Virus record (IMG/VR): IMGVR_UViG_3300037010_002901
Span: 1-64,000 of that record
DNA length: 64,000 bases
Reading direction: 5' to 3' (one strand)
Origin: a virus
Below, piece by piece: positions 29,580-62,196 of this stretch; the stretch's first letter is position 1; the number at the start of each line of letters is the position of its first letter. The translations under genes and the position numbers were made by a program. The notes beneath the pieces are model-generated. The model saw only the letters and a list, made by a program, of their open reading frames with translations. It was not told the DNA's origin and did not search any database.

Positions 29580-30503
29580 TTATTTTTTAACGTAGACTGT
29601 GCCATTCCAGATCAAAGATAATGTCTGGGTTACACTTGCTGCGCCAGTGATTGTATCAAATACACAATTGCTGCCGGCTGTCACCGTGTATGATCCGGTA
29701 AAGCCCAGTACTATTGTTATTTCAGAATATGGATTTGCCCCAAAAGTTCCCGCGCTTGGCGCAGTAAGATTAAGAGTTACGCTTCCATTTACCGAGCCGA
29801 CATTTATCAATAGCAGATTTGCTACCGGAACAATACTTTGGGTACCTGCGGCCCATGTTGCTATCTGTAGTTGCTTTGTAAGTACTAGAAGCTGATTTAA
29901 TGCCGCATCAGCATTATCCGAGGCTGTATTTGCTGTAATTTGAGCAGCGGCTCCTACTGCCTCGGCTTCTGATTGTGCATTCGCTATGGCCACTCCTTGA
30001 GCTATAGAAACTGGCTTATTATTATCTGCCGTGTTGTCTACGTAGTTCAATCCAACATCTCCTTTTGATAGTGTGATTGTTCCCGTTTTACCGGCAACTG
30101 ATAACACCGGAGGTACGTATGAGTCAAACGCAGTTGAAATTGCGTCGCTGATATCTGCGCTTATGCATTCAATATACCATTTGCCGTTAAATTTCATTGT
30201 TACAAGCACATCAACGGACTCGCCTATTGCAATGAGACCGGTCAAATTCTGACCTTGGACTATCACCGTATGACCCGCTGCAGTCATATTGCAGGTAAAC
30301 CATAAATCTATGGAATCACCAGCTACATATGTGTCTGAATTTGCCGATACTACAAAATTTGCCGACAATGTTCTTTGCCCACCTATATAGTATGCTGCAT
30401 TTTGAATAGGATTGTGCTGCCCTTCTACCGGAGCTCCATATTTTGCAATTGTCAACGAAGAGACATCTGCTACATCAATAGCTATTATATTTTCAGTTTT
30501 CAT
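29580..30503 (-). CDS. Fibre-type structural protein, 307 aa
   Basis: Contains the phage tail-fibre signature around residues 137-165: VAGKTGTITLSKGDVGLNYV followed by DNTADNNKPVS. Downstream lies an Ala/Asp/Asn-rich helical stretch (NTASDNADAALNQ) and a beta-rich C-terminus. Such modules occur in fibres of head or tail. Position right after the collagen-like protein suggests a head- or collar-fibre. Confidence 0.7.
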   Translation of the reverse strand: MKTENIIAIDVADVSSLTIAKYGAPVEGQHNPIQNAAYYIGGQRTLSANFVVSANSDTYVAGDSIDLWFTCNMTAAGHTVIVQGQNLTGLIAIGESVDVLVTMKFNGKWYIECISADISDAISTAFDSYVPPVLSVAGKTGTITLSKGDVGLNYVDNTADNNKPVSIAQGVAIANAQSEAEAVGAAAQITANTASDNADAALNQLLVLTKQLQIATWAAGTQSIVPVANLLLINVGSVNGSVTLNLTAPSAGTFGANPYSEITIVLGFTGSYTVTAGSNCVFDTITGAASVTQTLSLIWNGTVYVKK

Positions 30504-38296: not shown

Positions 38297-40546
38297 TTAA
38301 TCGTAATAATTTTCCATATTACTCATTCCGGTGAAGCCACCATAATTTGCAGGAGTTTTCACCTCTTGTCTTTTGGGTTTCCTCACCATTTTCGCATAGT
38401 AGCAGGCGTATCCTGCAGATACAAAGCTGTCAAAAGGACTCCAATCACTCGGATTCAAATCTCGACAATCTTCCAATATATTGATAAACTTGCACCTCAT
38501 TCCATGCTTATCTAAATGGCTGTCTACCGCCGCCATGATAGCCTCTGCCTGCGCACCGCCCACTGTCTGTACTCCCGGTTGCGATGCCTGTTGTGCGATT
38601 ATCTGCCCATTTTTCTCAGTAATGATTGTTCTGGTTTTTAGAAATTTACTGTACCCTCTTCTGGCAAAGTACTGCCGAACGTTATCAATATTTGTCTCAA
38701 CCATGATTTTGCAGCCCAGCCAGTGAACAAGAGCAATAGCATCTTCACAATATTCATCTGTCGTTCTTGGTCTGAAACAGTAGTGAATGCCCCAATCTTC
38801 AGTAAGCCAATCAGCTGTACTGCTTTTTTTCCCGTCTATCAGATCATCGAAATTGCAGAATACCGTAAGCGCTCCCATTGATTTTTTCGTGCCCTCTGTC
38901 TCGTTGTATTTGAATGTATCAGAGGCAGCCATATACAAAGCATCATTCAGTGGCATCAAAAATTCCGCATCGTTTATTCTGACACTATTAGCACGGTTTT
39001 TCTCTATATGCTCTATCAGTTCTCTTGGACCTCTGAATTTTCCATGCTCAGTCCATTCTACTTGATAACCGTTTTCTTCTTCATCCCATTTCAAGTTGAA
39101 TGCCTCTGTGAATGGATCGCCATATCTAAAATCTGTAAGTCTTCTTTGAATAATATCTATCGTATTGAATGGACATAACCTATTGACCGATGTAAATGCC
39201 TCTTTTAGCGAGAACGGGTACATACTCTGAAAAGCTTGCCTGTCTCTAGGATCTTCTATTGCCGCCAACTCCGCAGATAGTAGTTCCTTTGCTGCCATCA
39301 AGTGATACCCTTTGTCTACAAATGGTTTATATCCAAGTGATAGATAATATTGTTTCAAATACTCACTTTGCGCAGGCGTAGGATTTTCTATAATTGGAAA
39401 TCCCCATTGATCAAATACATAACTTTCCCAAGCGGGCTTGAACCACACAATTAAACCCGATACTGTTTCCCCAAGATCATTCATCATTTTTCTTGCAGGT
39501 ACACGGCTCGATTCATCAACTAGCTTTTTGAATTTTATGAGCCCTTTGGGAGTCATTTGCTCAACCGTAGTAGTTATAAGAGCTTTCCCATTTTTCACAA
39601 CCCTTACACGTAAGCATTGCTTATGAATACGCCATGTTGCATGGACGTCTACATCATCCCATTTCCCCGCTTCGTCTATTACCAGACCTATACAACAATC
39701 GTGGTGATCTTTTGCACCTAGCTTCTCACCATCAAACGCTGTTTCTTTTGTTGTGCGGGCCTCTATTCTACTATCCAACGACTCTACATCGCCCTCAGCT
39801 ATTATCAAGTCTGAGGCGTCCAGGTCATCACCACCTCGGCTCGCATCCCTGAGTATAAGTTCTTTCTTTGGATAGGTTTTATTGTCAAATTGTGGCGCGA
39901 AATAAAATGGCAATTTTCGCCAAGCTTTCACGACATTTTTATCGAAAAACTCAATTGCATCATTACCGTTTTTCGAAAGAATCCCACCTACTGAATATCG
40001 CACTCTTGTAGCTGCCTCAAGGAGTTTGAAACCGGCTTTTGTTGACTTGGCATCCCGGCGCATTGCTATACTAATACCACCATATACCAATGGATCTTTG
40101 AGCACACATATATTCCACCACCACTCCTCTTCAAGATCGGGATACCTAAATTCTGGTAGCTCGCCCTGCAGATATACATAATTCATAAAAAACCAGTAAT
40201 TACCCGGAATCCACAGCGGTTTTCCATAGATATACATGAAGACTCCGTTGCGCCTCTTTTCCCACTGAGTCTCTATCCATTCACCAAATTCAGGGTTTTT
40301 CTCTGCTATCGCGATTGCTTCTTTTCTCGGCAAGCGATTTAATTTTGCTACCCAAGCCGGTTTATCTTCGTACTTAAAGAATTGTTCTTCTTTGGGAAAT
40401 CCATAATTTATAAAATGTGTATGCGGGGGTGGAGCTGGTAATTCAACGTGATACGGCTCTACATCTTCATCTATGCCATCGCGAAGAATGATATTTCTTT
40501 TATAGTATTCGTATCCGAATTTTTGGATAGTCGTTTTAGAGGCCAT
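38297..40546 (-). CDS. Large terminase subunit
   Basis: 749 aa. The ATPase half has an adenine-side motif and a P-loop-like RRDAKSTKAG (about residues 163-172) and a clear Walker B (IGLVIDEAGKW, near residue 290). The nuclease half has acidic positions in FCNFDDLIDG and a later ETNIDN strand. It packages DNA into the prohead through the portal encoded next. The P-loop has Ala-Lys where most terminases have Gly-Lys. Confidence 0.85.
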   Translation of the reverse strand: MASKTTIQKFGYEYYKRNIILRDGIDEDVEPYHVELPAPPPHTHFINYGFPKEEQFFKYEDKPAWVAKLNRLPRKEAIAIAEKNPEFGEWIETQWEKRRNGVFMYIYGKPLWIPGNYWFFMNYVYLQGELPEFRYPDLEEEWWWNICVLKDPLVYGGISIAMRRDAKSTKAGFKLLEAATRVRYSVGGILSKNGNDAIEFFDKNVVKAWRKLPFYFAPQFDNKTYPKKELILRDASRGGDDLDASDLIIAEGDVESLDSRIEARTTKETAFDGEKLGAKDHHDCCIGLVIDEAGKWDDVDVHATWRIHKQCLRVRVVKNGKALITTTVEQMTPKGLIKFKKLVDESSRVPARKMMNDLGETVSGLIVWFKPAWESYVFDQWGFPIIENPTPAQSEYLKQYYLSLGYKPFVDKGYHLMAAKELLSAELAAIEDPRDRQAFQSMYPFSLKEAFTSVNRLCPFNTIDIIQRRLTDFRYGDPFTEAFNLKWDEEENGYQVEWTEHGKFRGPRELIEHIEKNRANSVRINDAEFLMPLNDALYMAASDTFKYNETEGTKKSMGALTVFCNFDDLIDGKKSSTADWLTEDWGIHYCFRPRTTDEYCEDAIALVHWLGCKIMVETNIDNVRQYFARRGYSKFLKTRTIITEKNGQIIAQQASQPGVQTVGGAQAEAIMAAVDSHLDKHGMRCKFINILEDCRDLNPSDWSPFDSFVSAGYACYYAKMVRKPKRQEVKTPANYGGFTGMSNMENYYD

Positions 40547-40559
40547 AGAGCAAAACTAA

Positions 40560-41204
40560 TTACTTTTTTTCCCTTTTCCTTTCTTCGGAAATTTTACTTG
40601 CGTTTTGCTCAGGACTGATAGCAAACCTTTTGCTCATTACTGCCAGTGATGAAATATTCTCGCTCAGGTCTCGATCACCCATGAATATTTTATCTGCCTC
40701 CGCTTCTATGCTTGACAAAGCGTTATTCATAGTATCATTCATTCTGAGCGCATCTGCACTGTCTTTCAATGTATATTTAGTAACGGCAAGCGCCTGCATC
40801 ATATTCCAGTAGTTCTCATTGGATATTATCCAAGAAGAGTAACGAGTATTTTTCTCAAATTTCAAAAATTGAAGAATCATTTTTACTACTACTTCATTTT
40901 CGTTATTGATCAACGCCTTTATTTCTATTGGCCATTCTCTTTCCCTCTCAAATCCGGCTTCTATGAGTGCTCGCTCTTTTCTACTGGAAATTTCGCTCAT
41001 GCGTATCACCAGTGGTGATTTGATATGATACGCAAATACAATGTATTTGACAATTTTTTCAATGGTCAATTGATCTTCAAAAACTTCTTCTTTAAACTCT
41101 AAAAAAATATTTTCTAAATCTGGGAATGCTTTAAAAAGATCACCCGAGAAACTTTTTAGGTTCCATTTCATTCGAGCATATTCTGAGCTAGGAATTACTT
41201 GCAT
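40560..41204 (-). CDS. Hypothetical protein upstream of terminase, 214 aa
   Basis: Helical, charged protein encoded 13 bases before the large terminase. By position it could be a small terminase subunit or packaging factor, but no DNA-binding motif is clear. Similar-size genes sit at this place in crAss-like phages as far as I recall. Confidence 0.5.
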   Translation of the reverse strand: MQVIPSSEYARMKWNLKSFSGDLFKAFPDLENIFLEFKEEVFEDQLTIEKIVKYIVFAYHIKSPLVIRMSEISSRKERALIEAGFEREREWPIEIKALINNENEVVVKMILQFLKFEKNTRYSSWIISNENYWNMMQALAVTKYTLKDSADALRMNDTMNNALSSIEAEADKIFMGDRDLSENISSLAVMSKRFAISPEQNASKISEERKREKK

Positions 41205-41213
41205 ACTATATTT

Positions 41214-41510
41214 TTACCAGCTTACTTTTATACCAATTTTCTTTCCTCTTTTATCTCCACTTTCCTCTGGAAATTCATAGTCGTTAGTTACAATGTAACC
41301 TTCTTTTCTAAGAGACTCGGACACGCTCTTTTCAAATTTAGACTTTAATATTGCATAGTCAACTCTAAACATGAAAAACCCTTGATCTACGGCATCATTG
41401 ATAATCTTAGAAATAATTTCTGTGGTTTTCCGCAATTCCTCTGTTTCCCTAGCAACACGTATTGGTTCTGCTGCCAAAGCTTTTTCCCGTGCTTCTTTTG
41501 CGCTGATCAT
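41214..41510 (-). CDS. Hypothetical protein, 98 aa
   Basis: N-terminal helix rich in Ala/Glu/Arg, then a mixed domain ending KRGKKIGIKVSW. Starts in a 4-base overlap with the GroES-like gene stop, so the two are coupled. No family recognised. Confidence 0.5.
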   Translation of the reverse strand: MISAKEAREKALAAEPIRVARETEELRKTTEIISKIINDAVDQGFFMFRVDYAILKSKFEKSVSESLRKEGYIVTNDYEFPEESGDKRGKKIGIKVSW

Positions 41511-41818
41511 ACCTCTGTTTTGAGTTCTGTAAATTCCGCATAAACTTCATCAATATTTATCACTAGGTACTTTTCGTGATTATGCGTAAATGCGCTTCCG
41601 GCATGTCTGCTGTGCAATATTAGTGCGCCCTTAGGAATATGAGCAGCAGCGCTTGATACTTCAATAACACGGCTTGTAGTAGGCACATCCTTATGCATTT
41701 TTTGCTCTGGCATAGCATACTTTTCTGTTTCAGGAAGAGACTCGGGTTGTACCAAAAGTCTACCAGTCAAAATTCCGTCTTTGCGGAAGTCATGGATTTT
41801 TAAAGATGGAACACTCAT
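41507..41818 (-). CDS. GroES-like (Cpn10-fold) protein
   Basis: 103 aa from the ATG at 41818. The pattern RLLVQPESLPETEKYAMPEQ ... SSAAAHIPKGALILHSRHAG ... EKYLVINIDEVYAEF follows the Cpn10 layout: first strand, roof/mobile-loop region, 'kGd'-like turn and the terminal strand binding the neighbour. It is immediately downstream of GroEL. Likely a third Cpn10-type cap for the phage chaperonin. A frame extension of 17 codons upstream would run through a tRNA-like hairpin and is rejected. Confidence 0.6.
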   Translation of the reverse strand: MSVPSLKIHDFRKDGILTGRLLVQPESLPETEKYAMPEQKMHKDVPTTSRVIEVSSAAAHIPKGALILHSRHAGSAFTHNHEKYLVINIDEVYAEFTELKTEV

Positions 41819-41833
41819 TTTTTTAAATTTTGC

Positions 41834-41876
41834 ACCCTGGGGTCGATTCGAACAACCCCAACATACCATACAGGGT
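41834..41876 (-). ncRNA. tRNA minihelix-like element between groEL and the GroES-like gene
   Basis: On the - strand ACCCT (41876-41872) pairs with AGGGT (41838-41834), and GGGGTTG pairs with CGACCCC around the loop TTCGAAT, which fits the tRNA T-loop consensus TTCRANY. Together this makes 5 + 7 = 12 bp, the length of a tRNA acceptor/T-arm stack; a 12-base gap replaces the D and anticodon arms. It fills the intergenic gap. Confidence 0.55.
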
Positions 41877-43558
41877 TAATTTTTTATTTCTGTGATTGTA
41901 GCCTCGGTAGTTATGATCGTGCCTGCTACGGACACTGCATTTTCCAATGCTATTCTTGGTACCTTGGTCGGGTCAATTATTCCAGACTCTCTGAGATTTT
42001 CTATTTTCCCGGTCTTTGCGTTGTAACCTATCTCTGGAGATGTCTGATCGATACGCAACTGGTTTAAAATTGAGTCAACGTCCTCTCCGCAGTTCTCTAT
42101 GAGTTGCTTAATTGGGACCAAAAGTGCTTTTATTACAATGTGCCTTCCTATTTGGAAATCTGTCATTGCATTCAAATCCTCTGGCAGCTCATAGAGCTTT
42201 TGGTAGATATTGTAAAATGGGATTGCCCCGCCGGTCACTACGCCTTCTGATATTGCTGCGCGTGTTGCAAGAATAGCATCTTCGACACGATATACCTTTT
42301 CGGAAAGCTCAACTTGAGTTGGTGCGCCTACGTGTATCACAGCGACGCCACCTTGCAATTTTGCAAGTCTTTCTTTCAATTGGTTTTCGTCTTTAGGATC
42401 TGCATTTGCAAGTTGTCCTTTCAAATCTTCAATTCTCTTGTCAATCACCTCTTTGGTCCCGGCACCATCAAAAATCATTGATTTTTCCGTAGTGATTACC
42501 ATGTTACCGCAGGTTCCCATTTCCTCACGTGTGATTCTACCTAAGGTTCGACCTTCACTTTCGAATACGGCTACTGCGCCGGTCACTGCAGCAATATCTT
42601 TCAACGTTTCTTTTCTAACGTCGCCACTTGATGGGGCGATCAAAATAGTTATATCGATTGGCGACAATCCTTTCCGCTGACGGTTTGCCCTGATAAACAT
42701 CATATTCTGATCGTCTATGTCGCTTACAATCAAAACTAGAGGACGAGGTTGAATCGCTTTTTGTTTTTCCGCATCTGTTGCATCTCTGTTATTTTGCTCT
42801 TCCCATTGATCAATTGCGTCTTGGTGAGCAATATCTATCAAATCCATAACGCCTACTTCGTCTACTTTGCCGCGAGCTATTATATCTGAAACTACTATCA
42901 GCGGCGATGCTATTTCAGACATTCTTCTCTGTTTGTCGCGCATAAATTCCTCACTAAGTAGTCCTGAGTCAAAAGACACTCCCAGGTAGGTCTTGAGTTG
43001 ATTTTTGAAAGTCGGGCTAAGTCCCATAGCTACCATGCCATTGATAGATACTTTTTCATAAGCTTCTCTGATCATGGCACCGATACTTTCATCGTTGTTT
43101 GCTGAAATGGTCGCTATTTTTTCGAGCAAATCCAAATCGCCATTTAAAGGAGTTGATTGCTCTTTGAGTGCAGAAACTATTTCAATCACAGCCTGATCCA
43201 TTCCTTTCTTTATAGCTGTAGGATTCCGTTTGCTTCCATCTACTTCTGCTATTCCGTCTTTGGCTATTGCCTGACATAAAATAGTTGCTGTTGTGGTTCC
43301 ATCGCCGGCTTGTTTCGCGGCTTGCTGCGCTGCCTGCTTTATAGCCTCAGCACCCATAGCCTCAACATCATCTACCGGAAATATGTTTTTTGCTACTGTC
43401 ACCCCGTCTTTTGTAGCATGGTGATCCTCATTGATTTTCTGAATGAATACAGTCCGTCCCTTGGGACCCAATGTAACCTTTACGGTATTCGCCACCTGAT
43501 CAATACCTGATAGAAGTGCTGCCCGAGCTTCCATTCCTAATAAGACTTTTTTTGCCAT
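41876..43558 (-). CDS. groEL: GroEL-type chaperonin (Cpn60)
   Basis: 560 aa with the hallmarks of Cpn60: LGPKGR (30-35), TKDGVTVAK (49-57), GDGTTTAT (85-92) for ATP, and the C-terminal equatorial region ending DPTKVPRIALENAVSVAGTI. The apical domain carries an insert of about 25 charged residues (near QWEEQNNRDATDAEKQKAIQ), and the C-terminus lacks the GGM tail of bacterial GroEL. It is flanked by two Cpn10-type genes, giving a phage-encoded chaperonin operon. Known phage GroELs help fold capsid proteins; here the capsid genes follow a few kb downstream in the same direction. Confidence 0.95.
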   Translation of the reverse strand: MAKKVLLGMEARAALLSGIDQVANTVKVTLGPKGRTVFIQKINEDHHATKDGVTVAKNIFPVDDVEAMGAEAIKQAAQQAAKQAGDGTTTATILCQAIAKDGIAEVDGSKRNPTAIKKGMDQAVIEIVSALKEQSTPLNGDLDLLEKIATISANNDESIGAMIREAYEKVSINGMVAMGLSPTFKNQLKTYLGVSFDSGLLSEEFMRDKQRRMSEIASPLIVVSDIIARGKVDEVGVMDLIDIAHQDAIDQWEEQNNRDATDAEKQKAIQPRPLVLIVSDIDDQNMMFIRANRQRKGLSPIDITILIAPSSGDVRKETLKDIAAVTGAVAVFESEGRTLGRITREEMGTCGNMVITTEKSMIFDGAGTKEVIDKRIEDLKGQLANADPKDENQLKERLAKLQGGVAVIHVGAPTQVELSEKVYRVEDAILATRAAISEGVVTGGAIPFYNIYQKLYELPEDLNAMTDFQIGRHIVIKALLVPIKQLIENCGEDVDSILNQLRIDQTSPEIGYNAKTGKIENLRESGIIDPTKVPRIALENAVSVAGTIITTEATITEIKN

Positions 43559-43609
43559 AAATCTGTGTTTTTTATATTATTATATCAAATTGATACCAGT
43601 TTTTTTACC

Positions 43610-44215
43610 TTAATTCAAATTTAATTTTTCGGATAGGGTCATCAAGATTTCATTCACCTGCATTCGGTATAAAGGTTCAGTTGTAGCAGTAAGAGCAAAC
43701 TCAACAGGTGCGTCACTATTTGTTTCATATATAACAAGATCACCTTCTTTAAGACCTTGTTCATTTTCGCCAATAAGTCTTATGGTCCCTTCTGCTGCAC
43801 TAACGTCCTGAATATCTCGATCGGTAAGTGAATACTTGCCTATTTTGTCTTTCTTATTTTGAACTGGAGATAATAGGCAATATCCATTCAAAGGAATACG
43901 AATGCCAGACCTTTGAATGAAGAATATGTCTTCACGCAGCATTAGAATTGCAGTTCTCTTTCTCTCAACTAGCAAAAGTCCTTCATCTGCCTGCGGCTTT
44001 GCGGATTCCAAGACTAGGTAATGAAAATAAACAGTATCACCTTTCTTTATCTCCGTTTCGCCTTCCGGCACACTTAATACAAGCCCAAACTTAGGGTGGT
44101 ATTTATTTTCGTTCATCAGGTGAGAAGGCATTACATACCCATTTTTCAGAGAATCTGGCTTCACCTGAACTTCTACTAAAATTTTGTTCTCTATTGGTTT
44201 AATTTGTGAGATCAC
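43610..44215 (-). CDS. Tandem double-domain GroES (Cpn20-like) co-chaperonin
   Basis: 201 aa made of two successive Cpn10-like units: residues about 1-98 (IKPIENKILVEVQVKPDS ... GDTVYFHYLVLESAKP) and about 101-198 (IRIPLNGYCLLSPVQNKKDK ... EGDLVIYETN ... MQVNEILMTL). This is the architecture of plant chloroplast Cpn20, rare in phages. It lies upstream of GroEL in the same operon and overlaps the next upstream gene by 4 bases. It would cap the phage or host GroEL. Confidence 0.7.
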   Translation of the reverse strand: MISQIKPIENKILVEVQVKPDSLKNGYVMPSHLMNENKYHPKFGLVLSVPEGETEIKKGDTVYFHYLVLESAKPQADEGLLLVERKRTAILMLREDIFFIQRSGIRIPLNGYCLLSPVQNKKDKIGKYSLTDRDIQDVSAAEGTIRLIGENEQGLKEGDLVIYETNSDAPVEFALTATTEPLYRMQVNEILMTLSEKLNLN

Positions 44216-44595
44216 CAGTTAGTATTTTTTAGTTTGTTCTCATATACAACAAAGTCCTTCAGTTTTTTTGATTTGGCTCGGTATATTACTGCACTTGAAA
44301 CCTCAATGCGTTCCATTGTGCCCTTTTTCACCTTTTCTTTACAGCGATCTATTTGCTTACCTTTTTGCCAGCGGGTTAGATTTTCCCAGTCTGATACTTC
44401 GTCAGGAATACGAAGAAGAATCTTTTGATTCCGGTGCTCAACTACCTTGTAGAAATTGTTATAGTTATCCGAAAAGTCATATTGAAAATCATCATCGATA
44501 TACACCGCAGATTTTTTTCTGTCAATTATGAGTTTGACGATGATAACTATAACAAGAATGACAAAGCCAATCCCTATTGTTTTTTCCCAGGCCAT
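44212..44595 (-). CDS. Membrane-anchored hypothetical protein, 127 aa
   Basis: N-terminal transmembrane helix (IGIGFVILVIVIIVKLII, residues 6-23) followed by a charged, basic cytoplasmic or periplasmic domain. Overlaps both neighbours (22 bases with the HExxH gene, 4 with the co-chaperonin gene). Function unknown. Confidence 0.6.
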   Translation of the reverse strand: MAWEKTIGIGFVILVIVIIVKLIIDRKKSAVYIDDDFQYDFSDNYNNFYKVVEHRNQKILLRIPDEVSDWENLTRWQKGKQIDRCKEKVKKGTMERIEVSSAVIYRAKSKKLKDFVVYENKLKNTNW

Positions 44596-45008
44596 ACAAA
44601 TATTTTTTTACGATAAAGCAATAATAGAGTATCAAAATAGTCTTTAACTTCTAAATAGGGAAGATATGGATCGTCTCCATTCCCACAAGTTTTCCATAGT
44701 AAATCCAATGCTCTTTTACTTGCGTTTTTTTCTACTACATACTGGAAAATTGGTGGTAAAATTCCCCACTGGCAAAGCCTAAGCGCCCAGTAGTGGCTAT
44801 TATCTTGAAGCACATGCGCTACCTCATGCGCAATAATTGCTTCATCTCTAAAGTCATTTTTAGCAATGGTTCCTATTTTTAGCAACCTGTTTGCGCTATC
44901 ATATTCCGACTGTTCTATGTTGATCGGATATGTTGCAATTATAACTGTCTGTATGTCGCCTAAAAGTCTTTTTGCAATAGCTTTCAGCGATTCCGGTGTT
45001 TGTTTCAT
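44574..45008 (-). CDS. HExxH putative zinc metalloprotease
   Basis: 144 aa with HEVAH at residues 61-65 in a helix (IIAHEVAHVLQDN), the zincin active-site motif. It has no N-terminal signal. Possible roles are processing a virion or host protein, or an ImmA-like cut of a repressor, but no HTH domain is fused. It lies between the recombination and chaperonin genes. Confidence 0.65.
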   Translation of the reverse strand: MKQTPESLKAIAKRLLGDIQTVIIATYPINIEQSEYDSANRLLKIGTIAKNDFRDEAIIAHEVAHVLQDNSHYWALRLCQWGILPPIFQYVVEKNASKRALDLLWKTCGNGDDPYLPYLEVKDYFDTLLLLYRKKIFVWPGKKQ

Positions 45009-49787: not shown

Positions 49788-49818
49788 CAAATGTAACATC
49801 ACTTTTCAATTTTCCAAA
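49788..49818 (-). promoter_or_regulatory. Leftward promoter
   Basis: On the - strand TTTG (49818-49815), 19 bases, then TACATTTG (49795-49788): an exact match to the Bacteroidota housekeeping promoter. Transcription would start near 49781, about 12 bases before the ATG at 49769. Confidence 0.85.
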
Positions 49819-49859
49819 ATTATAATTGAAATAATTTATTTTCATAAAAGTTTATTTTT

Positions 49860-49890
49860 TTTGGTTTTCTGAAATGCCTTTGTAGATTTG
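49860..49890 (+). promoter_or_regulatory. Rightward replication promoter
   Basis: TTTG (49860-49863), 19 bases, then TAGATTTG (49883-49890), again a full Bacteroidota match. It drives the replication genes after a leader of about 165 bases. Confidence 0.85.
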
Positions 49891-52526: not shown

Positions 52527-53081
52527 ATGAAATCATACCCATCAGAGTGGCCATTAGGCTACAAGCGCACACCAAATCCAACATTTTCAAGATTCAAAAC
52601 TACATTTGCAATGGCTCGCAATTTCGTTTTTGCTGAACTGCGCAGACTCGGCGCCAGCAATGATATTGTGATCTCATGCAGCATGAAACTATACGGCGAG
52701 CAACCAAAAGCTCGTATGAAAGAAAAGGGTGTGGCTGTATATTTTAAGCTCAATGACAAGCCCGTAGTGTTGTGCTGTGATAACTGGGATCAAATCCAAG
52801 ATAATCTTTATGCAATAGGATTGACTATTGAAGCTATGAGAGCTATGGAGCGCTGGGGAGTATCTAATATTCTTTCCAGAATGTTCTCAGGATTTGAAGT
52901 ATTGCCGGAGACTACAGAAGAAAATCCATATGAGGTACTTGGTGTTTCACCGAATGCCTCAGAGTTTGAGATTAAAAATGCTTGGAAAAATAAAATACTT
53001 GAGCATCATCCAGATAAAGGCGGCGATGTAGAGGAGTATCATAGAGTAAATAAAGCTTACGATAAACTTAAAAAAGATTGA
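52527..53081 (+). CDS. J-domain (DnaJ-like) protein
   Basis: 184 aa. Residues 133-184 form a J-domain: NPYEVLGVSPNASEFEIKNAW, then the invariant HPD (EHHPDKGG) and a final helix. The N-terminal 130 residues are a separate basic alpha/beta domain seen with the WPLGYKRT motif. A J-domain recruits host DnaK; here it could remodel replication complexes as lambda P and DnaJ do, or feed the phage chaperonin. Confidence 0.85.
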   Translation: MKSYPSEWPLGYKRTPNPTFSRFKTTFAMARNFVFAELRRLGASNDIVISCSMKLYGEQPKARMKEKGVAVYFKLNDKPVVLCCDNWDQIQDNLYAIGLTIEAMRAMERWGVSNILSRMFSGFEVLPETTEENPYEVLGVSPNASEFEIKNAWKNKILEHHPDKGGDVEEYHRVNKAYDKLKKD

Positions 53082-53083
53082 TT

Positions 53084-53776
53084 ATGGAATACGTAGTTTA
53101 TTACCGAGTCTCTACTAAGGGACAGGAAGAATCTGAACTGGGCCTCAAGGCACAGCGTACAGACGTTGAGCGCTTCATTGCTCGCACAAACGGATCTGTT
53201 CTTTCGGAATATAAAGAGACCGAGAGCGGAAAAAACAATAACCGCCCAGAACTACTGCGTGCAATCGGTGAAGCAAAAAGAACTGGTGCAAGATTATTGA
53301 TCAGCAAACTTGATCGATTAAGCCGAAATGCATCATTTACATTGATGCTGATGGATACCGGAGTAAAATTTACAGCGGTAGATATGCCAGATGCCAATGA
53401 GCTGACAATAGGCATACTGGCTGTCATTGCAGAACAAGAGAGAAAAACCATTTCTGCCAGGACAAAGGCAGGGCTTGCCGAAAAAGCCAAGGACCTAGCT
53501 AAAGAAGGGAAATTTTTGGGCAATCCTGATATAGCATCGTTTGCGCAGCGGGGAGCCATTGCTCGTCATGCAATAAAGAGAAGTGGGCAGACTCCAAATA
53601 AAGCAGTCCTTGGGCTTATTACCGAAATGAAAGGTGCAGGTAAAACCAATATCGAAATAGCAGCATTACTGAATGAGCAAAATCATAGAACCACTTATGA
53701 TAGGCCTTTTACCGCAGATAATGTTCGCATGATCTACAACGCACACATTTCTTCAATCAAATCAATAGCAGCTTAA
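53084..53776 (+). CDS. Serine recombinase (resolvase/invertase family)
   Basis: 231 aa from the ATG at 53084. The N-terminal catalytic domain has YYRVSTKGQ (Ser10), LDRLSRNA and an EQERKTISARTKAGL helix. The short C-terminal part holds a resolvase-type recombinase helix-turn-helix. A 230-aa enzyme is a small invertase/resolvase, not a large phage integrase, so it may resolve multimers or invert DNA rather than integrate. No inverted pairs of site-like repeats were found near it. Confidence 0.85.
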   Translation: MEYVVYYRVSTKGQEESELGLKAQRTDVERFIARTNGSVLSEYKETESGKNNNRPELLRAIGEAKRTGARLLISKLDRLSRNASFTLMLMDTGVKFTAVDMPDANELTIGILAVIAEQERKTISARTKAGLAEKAKDLAKEGKFLGNPDIASFAQRGAIARHAIKRSGQTPNKAVLGLITEMKGAGKTNIEIAALLNEQNHRTTYDRPFTADNVRMIYNAHISSIKSIAA

Positions 53777-54638: not shown

Positions 54639-54793
54639 TCATTACAGACAGCACCTATTGGAGCTACTATTGGACAGTAAAGATTTCTAAGATGCTTGGC
54701 GTACCGAGATACAAATGGTTTTGGTATGAACACGCGGGCACTGTCCGCAAGGGAACTATTTTATCTGAGGAGCTTATTAGAATAAAGTACTAA
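54632..54793 (+). CDS. Hypothetical small protein, 53 aa
   Basis: Trp/Tyr-rich small protein whose stop overlaps the transposase start (TAATG), so it is translationally coupled to it. No family recognised. Confidence 0.5.
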   Translation: MVIITDSTYWSYYWTVKISKMLGVPRYKWFWYEHAGTVRKGTILSEELIRIKY

Positions 54794-55767
54794 TGATACA
54801 GTTAAAGACATTCAAAACACTCATTGACCTTATCCTTTATTTCAAAGATGAGCAGGTTGGACGTGACTACCTCGCGCAGATACGTTGGAGCGGTAAAACC
54901 GTTTGTCCTTACTGCGATAGCGACAAGTGCTACACGTTTAAGAATGGTAAGGTATTCAAGTGTGGTGGGTGCAAACAACAGTTCTCAGTGCGCGTAGGCA
55001 CTATGTTTGAGGATAGCAAAATACCTTTGTCAAAATGGTTCGCTACCATCTATTTACTGACCTCACATAAGAAAGGTATCAGTTCATTACAGCTTGGTAA
55101 AGACATAGGCGTGACGCAGAAAACAGCATGGTTCATGTTACACCGTTGCCGTAAGTCATTAGGACTTAATACAGGCACCGAAAAGCTGACTGGTACTATT
55201 GAGGCTGATGAAACTCTCATGGGCGGTAAAGAAAAGAACAAACACAAGTCTAAGAGGACTGCAAACACACAGGGACGCAGTGTAGTGAACAAAACGCCAG
55301 TGATCGGTGTGATAGAGCGCAATGGTGAATTTCGCGCCACAGTAGCCAAGGATACATCTTCTAAATCTATCCGTCCGTTCATAGTCGGCAATGTAGAGTT
55401 CGGTGTTGACCTCAAAACTGATGAGTGGTTAGGCTACACTGTCCTGTCAGGTATGTATCACCACAAGCGTATCAATCACGGTGTTGATGAGTATGTACAT
55501 GGCGATACGCATACCAACACAATAGAAGGGGCATGGAGCCTGTTAAAGCGTTCGGTCTATGGAATCTATCACTCGGTATCTGCAAAGCACTTACAGCCTT
55601 ATGTGACTGAATCGGTATTCAGGTACAATACCCGTGAAATGAACGAGACGCAACGTTTTGACTATATGCTCAACAATATCAATACTCACATCACCTACAA
55701 ACAACTTATTCAATCGCATGACACAGACATCACAATTATTAGCACTGATAGACAAATGGAAGGTTAA
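54793..55767 (+). CDS. IS1595 family transposase (ISXO2-like)
   Basis: 324 aa. An N-terminal zinc ribbon (Cys38, Cys41, Cys57, Cys60) precedes a DDE-type domain: IEADETLMGGKEKNK, VDLKTDEWLGY and TNTIEGAWSLLKR supply the acidic and Asn/His residues of the family. Full length and intact. Usually such enzymes move by cut-and-paste with terminal inverted repeats. The flanking small genes overlap it and likely travel with it. Confidence 0.9.
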   Translation: MIQLKTFKTLIDLILYFKDEQVGRDYLAQIRWSGKTVCPYCDSDKCYTFKNGKVFKCGGCKQQFSVRVGTMFEDSKIPLSKWFATIYLLTSHKKGISSLQLGKDIGVTQKTAWFMLHRCRKSLGLNTGTEKLTGTIEADETLMGGKEKNKHKSKRTANTQGRSVVNKTPVIGVIERNGEFRATVAKDTSSKSIRPFIVGNVEFGVDLKTDEWLGYTVLSGMYHHKRINHGVDEYVHGDTHTNTIEGAWSLLKRSVYGIYHSVSAKHLQPYVTESVFRYNTREMNETQRFDYMLNNINTHITYKQLIQSHDTDITIISTDRQMEG

Positions 55768-57965: not shown

Positions 57966-58014
57966 CTTTTCTATTAATAAAAACCTGACTGTGTATAGGC
58001 AACAGTATAAAAAC

Positions 58015-58668
58015 ATGAAAAAATTGATCACAGTGTTAAGTATTGCAGCTATCTGCCATGCACTAAACAAAGCCTACTGCGAAGGTCTGGGTGATACCAC
58101 CCAACCAAGCTGGGAAGATGCACCCCAGTGGCAAAAAGACTCTGCAGTAAATGGAGTGAGCTTCCACCTGGCTTATCCTGACGCGCCAGCTTCAGCAAGT
58201 CACGAAAACTGGATGAATGAAAAGCTGGCAGACGGCTGGAAGTACGGCCAGGTGAAAGACCCGGCAAAGAAAGAGCACCCATGCTTAGTGCCTTTCAATG
58301 AGTTGCCGGCCACGCAGCAGGCTAAAGATTTTATCTTTAAGCAAACAGTACATGAGCTGGCGCCATACATCAGCGAAGAAGGAGAAAAGAAGGAGACCGA
58401 AGTAGAAAAAACGGCTTTTGAGACTAATCTGAAAATCGGCGATGATGTAATGGTAAAGAGCGGAGGTCCTAAAATGAAGGTAGATGTAGTCTTTAATACC
58501 CCGCTGGGTGTAAAGGCACACTGTACCTGGCCAGTAGGCAACCGCCAAACTTCTGACGTATTTTTCGAGCATACTCTCTACAAATTTGATCCTGCTCAGG
58601 AAGAAGCTACAGAAGCAAAGGCAAACGAAGGCCCGAGCCTGCCTAGTGACGAGAAAGTCAAGGCTTAA
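58015..58668 (+). CDS. RyR-domain and DUF2158-domain fusion protein
   Basis: 217 aa. The first about 105 residues resemble the RyR domain found in phages (AICHALNKAYCEGLGD ... PSWEDAPQWQKDSAVNGV). Residues about 135-185 match the DUF2158 (YodC-type) pattern (GDDVMVKSGGPKMKVD, then CTWPVGNRQT). A Glu/Lys-rich linker separates them. Role unknown; RyR domains may sense small ligands. The ATG at 58015 is chosen as the start of the first RyR helix. Confidence 0.7.
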   Translation: MKKLITVLSIAAICHALNKAYCEGLGDTTQPSWEDAPQWQKDSAVNGVSFHLAYPDAPASASHENWMNEKLADGWKYGQVKDPAKKEHPCLVPFNELPATQQAKDFIFKQTVHELAPYISEEGEKKETEVEKTAFETNLKIGDDVMVKSGGPKMKVDVVFNTPLGVKAHCTWPVGNRQTSDVFFEHTLYKFDPAQEEATEAKANEGPSLPSDEKVKA

Positions 58669-59032: not shown

Positions 59033-60493
59033 ATGTTCATCTGTAGTAAAAATTTAGAGTATCTGAAAACCATACCAGATAATACTTACGATAGTATTGT
59101 CACAGATGCGCCGTATGGTCTTGGCAAAGAGCCGGACGCCGTCAAAGTGCTGCAGGCATGGATTACCACCGGTTACTATGAGATCGGCGGGAAGGGATTC
59201 ATGGGCAAAGAGTGGGATGCATTCGTACCTCAGCCTCTATTCTGGAAAGAAGTGATCCGTGTGCTAAAACCTGGTGGCCATGTCCTCTGCTTCTTCGGTA
59301 CCCGCACTTATGACTGGGGTGTGATGGCTATGCGCCTCGCAGGGTTTGAGATTCGTGATCAGATAGACTGGCTTTATGGTCAGGGATTCCCTAAAAGTCT
59401 GAATGTGAGCGTGGCGATAGATAAGGAACTAGGAGCAGAAAGGGAGGTAATCGGAAAACGAGAGCATCCAACTTTGAAAGATAAATCAAAAATAAATCGT
59501 CAAGGCAATCAACAATTTCATGGAGAAAATAATATAAAAGACGAATGGGATGTGACAGGACCGAATTCGGATTACGCAAAACAATTCGACGGCTTTGGCA
59601 CCGCTCTAAAACCCGCTCATGAGCCGATAGTCATGGCCCGCAAACCCCTTTCAGGTACCGTTGCGAAGACAGTATTAGAGCATGGGACAGGAGGAATCAA
59701 TATTGATGGCTGTAGAATACCATTTGCCGGAGATACCGATCTAAGGCTGCTATATGGGGGAGGTACCGATATCCTGAGGGGAAACTATGTAGGTGCTACG
59801 CATGGCAACGGTAAAGAAAATATCGAAGCTAACGACCTCGGCCGCTGGCCCGCCAATGTGATTATAGATGAAGAAGCTGCTACCATGATTGATCAGCAAA
59901 CAGGAAAACTTACCAGTGGTGCTATGACAAAAAGTTATGAATATACCAACAATGGATTTTCATTAGGAAAACCAAGCGGCAGCACGAAGCAAATCCATGA
60001 AGCAAACAGCGGCGGAGGCTCCCGTTTCTTTTACTGCGCCAAGCCATCGAAAGAGGAGCGAAACAAGGGATGCGAACAAATGGAGCAAAAACCTTCCGGA
60101 GTAAAAAATGCCAGCGGTCGCGGGTACTCTGAGTCAGACCCATATAAGCAGGTACTCAATCAAAACACACACCCGACAGTAAAGCCAATCTCGCTTATGC
60201 GTTACTTGGTAAAAATGGTTACACCCCCAGGAGGTCATTGTTGCGATCCTTTTATTGGCAGCGGTACTACGCATATAGCATGTGAACTAGAGGGGTTTGA
60301 ATGTACCGGTATTGACGATGATCAAGAAAGTATTTTAATAGCCAAGGCACGAAGTAAAGGTTGGGCCGACGAGATTGCAGCAGCGGCATACCTGCGCACC
60401 CATCCAAAAGCACCGCCTGAGTCTGTCAAAAATCTAACTGCGGATCAAATAAGTTTTTTAGCGGGAAATATTCAAACATCACTTTTCTTATGA
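59033..60493 (+). CDS. Amino-type DNA methyltransferase, beta class order
   Basis: 486 aa. Motif IV is DAPY (25-28), a variant of DPPY; motif I, CDPFIGSGTT, lies near residue 404, followed by ECTGIDDD. The order IV-...-I is that of beta-class N6-adenine or N4-cytosine enzymes. Residues about 125-350 form the variable target-recognition region. Orphan enzyme without adjacent nuclease, probably anti-restriction or for packaging-related marking. Confidence 0.85.
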   Translation: MFICSKNLEYLKTIPDNTYDSIVTDAPYGLGKEPDAVKVLQAWITTGYYEIGGKGFMGKEWDAFVPQPLFWKEVIRVLKPGGHVLCFFGTRTYDWGVMAMRLAGFEIRDQIDWLYGQGFPKSLNVSVAIDKELGAEREVIGKREHPTLKDKSKINRQGNQQFHGENNIKDEWDVTGPNSDYAKQFDGFGTALKPAHEPIVMARKPLSGTVAKTVLEHGTGGINIDGCRIPFAGDTDLRLLYGGGTDILRGNYVGATHGNGKENIEANDLGRWPANVIIDEEAATMIDQQTGKLTSGAMTKSYEYTNNGFSLGKPSGSTKQIHEANSGGGSRFFYCAKPSKEERNKGCEQMEQKPSGVKNASGRGYSESDPYKQVLNQNTHPTVKPISLMRYLVKMVTPPGGHCCDPFIGSGTTHIACELEGFECTGIDDDQESILIAKARSKGWADEIAAAAYLRTHPKAPPESVKNLTADQISFLAGNIQTSLFL

Positions 60494-60850: not shown

Positions 60851-60924
60851 GGGTATCATACGGGATTCGAACCCGTTCCGATCAGTACCACAAACTGATG
60901 CTCTACCACTAAGCTAATGACACC
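60851..60924 (-). tRNA. tRNA-His (GTG)
   Basis: Acceptor GGTGTCA/TGATACC with discriminator C, anticodon stem TCAGT/ACTGA around TTGTGGT, T-arm loop TTCGAAT. The C73 fits histidine; the CCA end is not encoded. Confidence 0.9.
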
Positions 60925-60963
60925 AAATAACACGTGCAGCGGAACTACTTTTATTCCTATACC

Positions 60964-61003
60964 CTTTCGGATAGTTGGGTTTGAACCAACACCATCTGCA
61001 CTC
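60964..61003 (-). pseudogene. tRNA 3'-half remnant
   Basis: GTTGG/CCAAC with loop TTCAAAC is a perfect T-arm, but the 5' part (acceptor, D-arm, anticodon arm) is missing because tRNA-Pro lies immediately upstream. Confidence 0.5.
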
Positions 61004-61004
61004 G

Positions 61005-61077
61005 TAGAGTAGACCGGGCTCGAACCGGCGACCCCTTGCTCCCAAAGCAAGCACGCTACCAACTGCGCTACTACTCT
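61005..61077 (-). tRNA. tRNA-Pro (TGG)
   Basis: Acceptor AGAGTAG/CTACTCT, anticodon stem CTTGC/GCAAG around TTTGGGA, T-loop TTCGAGC, discriminator A. Complete cloverleaf by eye. Confidence 0.92.
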
Positions 61078-61118
61078 ATTTTTGTCACAATTATACCGTA
61101 AATGTGTGACAGATTTCG

Positions 61119-61189
61119 TTGTCCATTCTGGATTCGAACCAGAGTTATCGGGTCCAAAACCCGATCTCCTGCCGCTAGACAAATGGACA
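61119..61189 (-). tRNA. tRNA-Gln (TTG)
   Basis: Acceptor TGTCCAT/ATGGACA, anticodon stem TCGGG/CCCGA around TTTTGGA, T-loop TTCGAAT, discriminator A. Confidence 0.92.
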
Positions 61190-61191
61190 AT

Positions 61192-61222
61192 AAAAAACCC
61201 CTACCAATTTCTCGGTAAGGGT
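61192..61222 (-). terminator. Intrinsic terminator between tRNA genes
   Basis: ACCCTTACC pairs with GGTAGGGGT (one wobble) and is followed by TTTTTT on the - strand. It ends a transcription unit upstream of tRNA-Gln. Confidence 0.75.
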
Positions 61223-61306
61223 CTATATATGGTACACACACAGGCTGCCTATCCGATTGGTCGGTTAAGTGGCTGCGGCTGATGTGATATCCTCGTGATC
61301 ATGGCA

Positions 61307-61314
61307 CAAATGTA
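61307..61314 (-). promoter_or_regulatory. Candidate -7 element before the tRNA-Gln unit
   Basis: TACATTTG, preceded by A/T-rich sequence; the -33 element is weak. It shares the flanking word TGCCATG with the element at 61776-61783. Confidence 0.4.
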
Positions 61315-61428
61315 TAAAATACAAATGGAATTGTAAAACTACAATGAATTTTAAAAATAATTTTTGAGCAATAGCAACGGTTTTAAGGTTGATATTGTTT
61401 TTTAATTGTAGAACTACAAGACAAAAAG

Positions 61429-61500
61429 TGGTATCGGATGGAATCGAACCACCGACGCGGACGCCTTCAACGCCCCGCTCTACCCCTGAGCTTCGATACC
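61429..61500 (-). tRNA. tRNA-Phe (GAA)
   Basis: Acceptor GGTATCG/CGATACC, anticodon stem GGGCG/CGTCC around TTGAAGG, T-arm GGTGG/CCATC with loop TTCGATT, discriminator A. Confidence 0.88.
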
Positions 61501-61506
61501 TTTTGT

Positions 61507-61563
61507 GGTCAGCGGATGGAATAAAACCACCATAGACCGAAGCCAACGCATTTTACAGTGCGC
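61507..61563 (-). pseudogene. Degenerate tRNA-Tyr (GTA) remnant
   Basis: Has a CTGTAAA anticodon loop in a CGCA/TGCG stem with an extra base, a long variable arm (GGCTTCGGTC) as in tRNA-Tyr, and a T-arm GGTGG/CCATC with loop TTTTATT instead of TTCGATT. The 5' acceptor and D-arm are missing. Confidence 0.5.
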
Positions 61564-61566
61564 ATG

Positions 61567-61640
61567 CACGTAGGGTAGGACTCGAACCTAACAACCTGCG
61601 GTTTTGGAGACCGATGCTCTACCAATTGAGCTACCTACGT
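61567..61640 (-). tRNA. tRNA-Trp (CCA)
   Basis: Acceptor ACGTAGG/CCTACGT, anticodon loop CTCCAAA, T-loop TTCGAGT (one T-stem mismatch), discriminator G as in tryptophan tRNAs. Confidence 0.88.
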
Positions 61641-61643
61641 AAA

Positions 61644-61684
61644 TTGAAGAGCCCCTGCAGAAAATCTCTACAGGGGCTCTTCAA
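61644..61684. repeat. Perfect 14-bp inverted repeat
   Basis: TTGAAGAGCCCCTG at 61644-61657 and its exact complement at 61671-61684 enclose 13 bases. Not followed by a T run on the - strand; it could be a processing or pausing hairpin before tRNA-Trp. Confidence 0.8.
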
Positions 61685-61775
61685 GTATATCCGAAACTAA
61701 TCTACATACCAATCTGAGCCCCCTTGCAGAGACTATACCAGAACGATAATGATAGATTAGAAAATTTCATGGCAC

Positions 61776-61783
61776 AAATATAG
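61776..61783 (-). promoter_or_regulatory. Candidate tRNA-operon promoter element
   Basis: TATATTTG at the start of the tRNA-Trp side unit; a T-rich -33 region lies 19 bases upstream. Confidence 0.45.
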
Positions 61784-61817
61784 AATTATTTTATTCACAT
61801 AAAAACTACAAAATTAC

Positions 61818-62063
61818 TCATACAAGAACCTTACTCAGCTCTTTCAGCACAGCATTCCATTTTTCCATACTGTCATACTCAATTACGATCGACTCCATCC
61901 CTTTGTAATAGAACTCTATAAACCAGCGGCGCCCGGAACCTTCACCCTCTACATACGAATATAAAAACCGGTAGTCTTCATGTTTAATCTGCAGGTGTAG
62001 AAGATCATTGACATAAACACACGTGGCATAAAGGCTTTTACAAACTCGAATTTCAAATGGCAT
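61818..62063 (-). CDS. Hypothetical protein, 81 aa
   Basis: Compact alpha/beta protein (RRWFIEFYYKGMESIVIEYD). No family recognised. It lies between tRNA-Met and the other tRNA genes. Confidence 0.55.
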   Translation of the reverse strand: MPFEIRVCKSLYATCVYVNDLLHLQIKHEDYRFLYSYVEGEGSGRRWFIEFYYKGMESIVIEYDSMEKWNAVLKELSKVLV

Positions 62064-62123
62064 GGTATAAAATTACAAAAAGCCGCCATTACTTACAGCT
62101 TTTGCATTCATAGGTTTTTTGTG

Positions 62124-62196
62124 TAGCGTGGGCGGGACTCGAACCCGCGACCTTCCGGTTATGAGCCGGACGAGCTACCAACTGCTCCACCCCGCA
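62124..62196 (-). tRNA. tRNA-Met (CAT)
   Basis: Anticodon stem TCCGG/CCGGA around CTCATAA, T-arm GCGGG/CCCGC with TTCGAGT, discriminator A. The acceptor TGCGGGG pairs with CCACGCT in only five of seven positions, with mismatches at the first and fifth pairs, so the gene may be degrading or edited. The anticodon arm lacks the GGG/CCC pairs of initiators. Confidence 0.8.

What the first reader, a model, noticed from the sequence alone, without database searches (positions are those of the whole stretch)
41507..44215. Phage chaperonin operon with a two-domain GroES, GroEL and a third Cpn10-type gene
GroEL is complete, with an apical insert and no GGM tail. The upstream gene encodes two Cpn10 units in one chain, as in chloroplast Cpn20, and a third Cpn10-like gene follows. 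Double Cpn10 in a phage is unusual, and a cap of paired domains must match a seven-fold ring. A J-domain protein sits in the replication arm, so the phage seems to carry several folding parts.
Basis: partly seen in the sequence, partly recalled or inferred. Interest (0 to 1): 0.85.

Follow-up and report, generated by a model that had tools for sequence, protein, structure and literature searches.

The report
Phage double-lid chaperonin gene set
This phage carries its own protein-folding barrel (GroEL) with two kinds of lid protein, one of them a double lid of the sort thought special to chloroplasts; a gene for such a double lid turns out to stand next to the DNA-packaging motor gene in a large group of mostly aquatic phages, so it is real and interesting but not unique to this genome.

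Summary
Window 41507-44215 (minus strand) encodes a 201-aa protein with two Cpn10 domains, a complete GroEL (560 aa) and a single Cpn10 (120 aa, or 103 aa from an internal ATG). Both refutation tests were run and passed: each half of the 201-aa protein matches Cpn10 profiles and its predicted fold is closest to chloroplast Cpn20 (VIA Z 11.6, Foldseek E 2.7e-6); the 120-aa protein folds as Cpn10. An HMM built without the window protein finds it at E 4.6e-12, and relatives stand just upstream of terL in 125 of 126 testable TerL loci, in isolates (Cellulophaga, Flavobacterium, Maribacter phages, often labelled 'GroES') and metagenomes. All 17 long records with GroEL also have a single Cpn10. Peculiar here: the GroEL-Cpn10 pair sits between the double-lid gene and terL, GroEL has about 26 extra apical residues, and all proteins are very divergent. 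Best mechanism: a GroEL lid, perhaps a mixed seven-domain ring (three doubles plus one single), serving phage proteins; unproven. I found no paper describing phage tandem Cpn10, but a key survey (Marine et al.) could not be read. New variant of a known kind.

The parts
43610..44215 (-). Two-domain Cpn10 (tandem GroES) gene, 201 aa, GTG start; member of the terL-adjacent tandem-Cpn10 family
   Evidence: Pfam Cpn10 1.1e-8; family HMM 4.6e-12, only significant hit among 297 window ORFs; AF2/Foldseek/VIA to Cpn20
43907..44215 (-). Cpn10 domain 1 (aa 1-103)
   Evidence: singles HMM hit aa 6-65; HHalign of the domain-1 profile 1.3e-7
43613..43906 (-). Cpn10 domain 2 (aa 104-201)
   Evidence: singles HMM hit aa 128-169; HHalign of the domain-2 profile 1.9e-10; VIA to single Cpn10s Z about 8 over model residues 102-196
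44105..44149 (-). Domain-1 mobile loop (aa 23-37, LKNGYVMPSHLMNEN)
   Evidence: pLDDT under 50 at 23-37; aligned with GroES-type loops
43808..43852 (-). Domain-2 loop (aa 122-136, contains GKYSL)
   Evidence: pLDDT under 50 at 122-124 and 126-136; aligned beside the SGIFL loop of L172, register uncertain by one residue
41876..43558 (-). GroEL (group I chaperonin), 560 aa, starts 51 nt after the tandem gene
   Evidence: D52, D87, D398 and D495 conserved
42743..42883 (-). Apical-domain stretch about 26 aa longer than in other GroELs (around aa 226-272); exact insertion point uncertain
   Evidence: gap in the phmmer alignment between query 227 and 265; MAFFT alignment
41507..41869 (-). Single-domain Cpn10 (120 aa; 103 aa from the internal ATG at 41818), 6 nt after GroEL
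   Evidence: PHROG GroES 5.7e-4; AF2 model matches Cpn10s, Z 9.8; GroEL->Cpn10 order shared with relatives
41214..41510 (-). 98-aa protein of unknown function, overlaps the Cpn10 stop by 4 nt
   Evidence: weak PHROG hits only; gap analysis
40560..41204 (-). 214-aa protein of unknown function, upstream of terL
   Evidence: no PHROG hit
38297..40546 (-). Large terminase subunit (terL), anchor gene of the neighbourhood
   Evidence: PHROG terminase large subunit 5.9e-50; relatives in Cellulophaga/Flavobacterium/Maribacter phages
52527..53081 (+). J-domain protein with HPD motif, in the opposite (replication) arm; context only, no shown link to the chaperonin
   Evidence: Pfam DnaJ 2e-12; sequence HHPDKGG

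Best explanation
A phage-encoded group I chaperonin set: a GroEL ring with two co-chaperonins, a two-domain Cpn10 (201 aa) and a one-domain Cpn10 (120 aa). Shown by sequence and structure prediction: the identities of the three proteins, their order, and the family's conserved place beside terL. Inferred: the Cpn10 domains pack side by side, as in Cpn20, into a lid whose mobile loops bind GroEL apical domains and close the chamber over phage proteins, most likely head or packaging proteins made from the same late operon. Inferred and weaker: the lid is a mixed ring of seven domains (for example three double chains plus one single), which removes the odd/even mismatch. The double lid is tied to terL, so it is probably the morphogenesis-specific partner (a role like T4 gp31), usable with a phage GroEL or, where none is encoded (phi13:2), the host's.
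For: Both halves match Cpn10; the fold matches Cpn20 over both domains; low-confidence loops fall where GroES mobile loops lie. ATPase residues of GroEL are intact. The single Cpn10 is present in every further record that has GroEL: 17 of 26 records across, plus MW202828, elemoE, Panino; all these also carry the double gene. The GroEL->Cpn10 order recurs in the 15 IMG/VR records, three isolate-type genomes and three MAG contigs. Family position: 125 of 126 TerL-fetched loci with at least 900 b upstream. Mixed seven-domain rings of Cpn20 with Cpn10, and function of six- or eight-domain lids, are described for chloroplast proteins (PMC5780408, PMC3542282). In the window the domain-1 loop (NGYVMP), single-Cpn10 loop (EKYAMP) and perhaps domain-2 loop (GKYSL) share a tyrosine at the first hydrophobic position, not seen there in the relatives compared, while GroEL apical contact residues Y203 and V263 are E and R: a hint of one shared, co-varied partner site.
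Against: No binding or stoichiometry evidence; no multimer prediction could be run. In most of the family domain 2 has a short loop without a GroES-like hydrophobic triad, and domain 1 has an acidic residue in it (GG[IVL][DE][FL]I), so a mixed ring would not have seven canonical loops. The double gene also occurs where no phage GroEL was found (phi13:2 complete; L172/L173 records, possibly incomplete). The domain-2 loop register in the window is uncertain, so the shared-tyrosine pattern is post hoc. The AF2 models are of medium confidence (pLDDT about 70), and the 103-aa model used Cpn10 relatives in its alignment.
Confidence: 0.6

Rival explanations
1. The tandem Cpn10 is no longer a GroEL lid but a repurposed packaging or head-assembly factor tied to terminase (Cpn10 fold as a scaffold).
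For: Near-constant adjacency to terL, present where GroEL is absent (phi13:2); domain 2 mostly lacks a canonical loop and the domain-1 GD..VHHNVF region is strongly conserved beyond what a lid needs.
Against: Domain 1 or domain 2 keeps a recognisable loop in each lineage, canonical SGIFL in L172/L173/L175 domain 2 and NGYVMP in the window; in the phi38:1 record the downstream head genes are labelled structural but this gene is hypothetical, which is weak evidence against a virion role; the window places it directly before GroEL.
Confidence: 0.25
2. Homo-oligomeric double lid: the tandem chains alone form six- or eight-domain lids (or seven chains with domain 2 stacked outward), and the single Cpn10 makes its own ordinary heptamer; the phage has two alternative lids for different substrates.
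For: At-cpn20 and Pf-cpn20 alone are mostly tetramers and function with GroEL (PMC3542282); the double and single genes are in separate gene clusters in all relatives but the window, suggesting separate expression.
Against: In the window all three genes are consecutive on one strand; single and double always co-occur with GroEL.
Confidence: 0.3
3. The GroEL or lids are decaying passengers without function.
For: High divergence; Y203, V263 changed; weak Pfam score of the 120-aa protein.
Against: All frames open, ATPase residues intact, three genes tightly packed and the set kept across distant lineages.
Confidence: 0.05

Closest known systems
terL-adjacent 'co-chaperonin GroES' of Bacteroidota podoviruses (Cellulophaga phi13:2, Calle_1, phi38:1; Flavobacterium elemo phages; Maribacter Panino; MW202828)
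   Same: Same 180-200 aa two-domain protein immediately or one gene upstream of terL; usually with a separate GroEL and single Cpn10
   Different: 15-25% identity to the window protein; there the GroEL-Cpn10 pair lies kilobases away, in the window it lies between the tandem gene and terL (largest spacing, 3067 b, of 237 pairs)
Chloroplast/apicoplast Cpn20 (Cpn21)
   Same: Two head-to-tail Cpn10 domains; best PDB fold match (7ekq_R); accompanied by single Cpn10 and Cpn60
   Different: Phage-encoded, no plastid origin; domain-2 loop not clearly canonical; very low sequence identity (16-17%)
T4 gp31 / RB49 CocO
   Same: Phage-encoded Cpn10-fold co-chaperonin, proposed to serve capsid protein folding
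   Different: gp31 is single-domain and works with host GroEL; here double plus single lid and the phage's own GroEL
Phage chaperonins EL, OBP, AR9
   Same: Phage-encoded GroEL relatives
   Different: Those are reported to act without a co-chaperonin (PMC9598537); this phage encodes two putative co-chaperonins

Membership tests
Cpn10/GroES fold family (PF00166), 201-aa protein | Significant Cpn10 profile match in both halves | tested here: met
   Pfam 1.1e-8, 35.4 bits against cut-off 21.1; singles HMM two domains; HHalign
Cpn10/GroES fold family (PF00166), 201-aa protein | Mobile loop with a hydrophobic triad | tested here: inconclusive
   Domain 1 NGYVMP is plausible; domain 2 GKYSL uncertain
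Cpn10/GroES fold family (PF00166), 201-aa protein | Forms a ring and caps GroEL | not testable with these tools
   No multimer prediction or assay available
Cpn10/GroES fold family (PF00166), 120-aa protein | Cpn10 profile and fold | tested here: met
   PHROG GroES 5.7e-4; Pfam below cut-off, 17.1 against 21.1 bits; fold match Z 9.8 to 1wnr, rmsd 1.7, 71 aligned, above the unrelated rows at 5.9
Chloroplast Cpn20 | Two Cpn10 domains head-to-tail in one chain | tested here: met
   VIA Z 11.6, 168 aligned, rmsd 5.1, to 7ekq_R; Foldseek E 2.7e-6
Chloroplast Cpn20 | Functional mobile loops in both domains | tested here: inconclusive
Chloroplast Cpn20 | Plastid lineage (nuclear gene, plastid or apicoplast protein) | tested here: not met
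   Gene lies in a phage late operon beside terL and portal; so it works like Cpn20 at most, it is not a Cpn20
terL-adjacent tandem-Cpn10 phage family | Full-length homology to the family | tested here: met
   HMM built without the window protein: 4.6e-12 over aa 36-193
terL-adjacent tandem-Cpn10 phage family | Upstream of terL on the same strand | tested here: met
   3067 b upstream, with GroEL, Cpn10 and two small genes between
Group I chaperonin (GroEL) | Full-length Cpn60 with conserved ATPase residues | tested here: met
Group I chaperonin (GroEL) | Seven-fold (double) ring that uses a Cpn10 lid | not testable with these tools
   Needs purified protein or multimer modelling

The most novel reading that the evidence does not exclude
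A bacterial-virus counterpart of the chloroplast Cpn20/Cpn10 system: a large phage group builds a mixed, seven-domain GroEL lid from double and single Cpn10 chains for its own morphogenesis, and in this genome all parts, including a GroEL with an extended apical domain, form one operon beside terL.
Probability: 0.3. Interest if true: 0.8.

Novelty: new variant of a known kind. Interest (0 to 1): 0.6.

Why it matters
[quoted passage not shown] A widespread phage family with the same architecture, plus a small operon carrying double lid, single lid and barrel together, gives an independent and easily expressed system in which to test mixed lids. It also suggests that lid function is tied to head or packaging assembly in many aquatic Bacteroidota phages, and that genes labelled simply 'GroES' in GenBank hide a two-domain protein.

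Tried and rejected
Single-protein scans of IMG/VR with the 201-aa, 120-aa, GroEL and TerL proteins found nothing: the window is a divergent lineage; relatives came only through TerL and the family alignments. tblastn of the 201-aa protein against phages: no match. BLASTP between the two Cpn10 proteins of the window: no signal. First alignments of the 120-aa protein misplaced its loop; A10 fixed this by adding window domain 1. I considered that GroEL helix-H contact residues L234/L237 were lost, but the alignment across the extra 26 residues is ambiguous, so that is not claimed. A Bacteroidota-type promoter scan (TTTG-N-TANNTTTG) gave 7 hits against 3.2 expected, 7 of 100 shuffles reaching this, none before GroEL: not used. 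cr108_1, a true crAss-like phage, has a GroEL but its terL-upstream gene looks unrelated by eye (no search made). Literature: no held paper on phage tandem GroES; the viral chaperonin survey of Marine et al. (ISME J) is cited in PMC7185714 but a look-up by a DOI recalled from memory found nothing, so prior notice there cannot be excluded.

Full report
Observation. The three genes exist as described on the minus strand: 201 aa (43610-44215), GroEL 560 aa (41876-43558), 120 aa (41507-41869; 103 aa if the ATG at 41818 is used). They are consecutive, with a 4-nt overlap before the first, 51 nt, 6 nt, and a 4-nt overlap to the next gene, and run into terL and portal. The window is part of a 69,418-b IMG/VR virus record.

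Identity of GroEL. Pfam, PHROG and PDB searches leave no doubt. D52, D87, T89-T91, D398, N479 and D495 are kept; Y199, Y203 and V263, in the apical substrate/GroES-binding face (assignment from established knowledge of GroEL), are L, E and R. The apical domain has about 26 additional residues between E. coli-equivalent positions near 225 and 250 that none of the E. coli, DAC16, elemo, Panino, MW202828 or L073 GroELs has. There is no GGM tail, but the elemo, Panino, MW202828 and L073 GroELs also lack one.

Identity of the 201-aa protein. Its first half passes the Pfam Cpn10 cut-off. A profile of 11 single phage Cpn10s hits both halves with 16.3 bits each, and both halves of relatives L172, L173, L175 and phi13:2. 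In phi13:2 the second half itself passes the Pfam cut-off. Profile-profile comparison of each domain with single Cpn10s gives E 1.3e-7 and 1.9e-10. An AlphaFold2 model on 64 sequences from window and IMG/VR has pTM 0.67; its low-confidence stretches 23-37 and 122-136 coincide with the two mobile-loop positions. The best PDB match is the two-domain Cpn20 chain of 7ekq (Foldseek E 2.7e-6; VIA Z 11.6 over 168 residues, rmsd 5.1), with single Cpn10s next for the second domain. In BFVD the Cellulophaga phi18:3 protein named cpn10 is among the four best.

Identity of the 120-aa protein. Sequence evidence alone is weak (Pfam 0.0058, below cut-off; PHROG GroES 5.7e-4). The predicted fold matches Cpn10 in the 16 best VIA rows, Z 9.8 to 7.1, above unrelated rows at 5.9 and below; the alignment used for it contained Cpn10 relatives, so this is support rather than independent proof. 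Position agrees: GroEL followed by a single Cpn10 is the order in 15 IMG/VR records, in MW202828, elemoE and Panino, and in three MAG contigs (L264, L266, L268). Calle_1 and phi38:1 have the reverse order.

The family. TerL relatives led to four groups of phages with a 180-200 aa gene zero or one gene upstream of terL, mostly annotated 'co-chaperonin GroES'. An HMM of six of these, built without the window, hits the window's 201-aa ORF at 4.6e-12 and nothing else significant among 297 ORFs. To avoid circularity I counted only loci fetched through TerL: of 126 with at least 900 b upstream, 125 carry the gene. Twenty-two MAG contigs carry it too, about half binned as Bacteroidota, the rest in unrelated bins, as expected of phage contigs in metagenome bins. 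The isolated hosts are Cellulophaga, Flavobacterium and Maribacter, so a Bacteroidota host for the window is likely but not shown.

What is special in the window. In 237 tandem-terL pairs the window has the largest spacing (3067 b), because the GroEL-Cpn10 pair and two small genes lie between; elsewhere the pair is kilobases upstream or on the other strand. So the window unites the two chaperonin clusters. The loops also differ: most of the family has GG[IVL][DE][FL]I in domain 1 and a short loop in domain 2; L172, L173 and L175 have a canonical SGIF[LI] loop in domain 2; the window has NGYVMP in domain 1 and a long domain-2 loop with GKYSL, and its single Cpn10 has EKYAMP. The shared tyrosine, with changed GroEL apical residues, hints at one common binding site, but it was noticed after the fact.

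Mechanism. I think most likely that both Cpn10 proteins are GroEL lids. Chloroplast Cpn20 and Cpn10 can form hetero-oligomers with seven domains, and six- or eight-domain lids also function with GroEL (PMC5780408, PMC3542282). The constant presence of a single Cpn10 beside GroEL in phages that also have the double gene makes a mixed ring possible here. The tight terL linkage suggests that head or packaging proteins are the clients, as for T4 gp31 (established knowledge; [quoted passage not shown] Steps shown: identities, order, conservation. Steps inferred: ring formation, GroEL capping, mixed stoichiometry, clients. The chief alternatives are two separate lids and a terminase-linked, non-lid role.

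Novelty. Two-domain Cpn10 is a known kind (Cpn20), and the phage genes are already in GenBank as 'GroES', so this is not categorically new. I found no held paper that recognises the double domain in phages; [quoted passage not shown] The Marine et al. survey of viral chaperonins could not be read. Hence 'new variant of a known kind', interest 0.6.

Noticed in passing
window 54793-55767 + and 53078-53776 +: An IS1595/ISXO2-type transposase gene and a serine resolvase gene lie in the early arm of the phage genome, close to the J-domain gene.
   Followed up: no
window 57991-58668 +: RyR-domain protein (Pfam 2.9e-12); the Cellulophaga phages Calle_1 and phi38:1 also carry an annotated RyR-domain protein in their structural arm.
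   Followed up: no
window 3076-4617 + and 59033-60493 +: Two DNA methyltransferase genes at opposite ends of the window.
   Followed up: no
window 60851-62196 -: Six tRNA genes in a cluster (His, Pro, Gln, Phe, Trp, Met).
   Followed up: no
window 12730-19680 -: A 2316-aa late-arm protein with no PHROG match.
   Followed up: no
window 49788-49890: Back-to-back matches to a Bacteroidota-type promoter pattern on both strands in the region between the leftward late arm and the rightward early arm; the window total is not above chance.
   Followed up: partly
L172, L173, L175: Tandem-Cpn10 relatives in which the canonical loop (SGIF[LI]) is in domain 2 rather than domain 1, and no GroEL was found in the two long records searched (62 and 54 kb).
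   Followed up: partly
phi13:2 (NC_021803), 30087-30311 and 40708-41310: Has a single Cpn10 and the double Cpn10 but no GroEL in the whole 72-kb record: both lids would have to use host GroEL.
   Followed up: partly
window 44574-45008 -: Weak match to a zinc metallopeptidase family (Zn_peptidase_2, 7.5e-5, below cut-off) two genes upstream of the double-lid gene.
   Followed up: no
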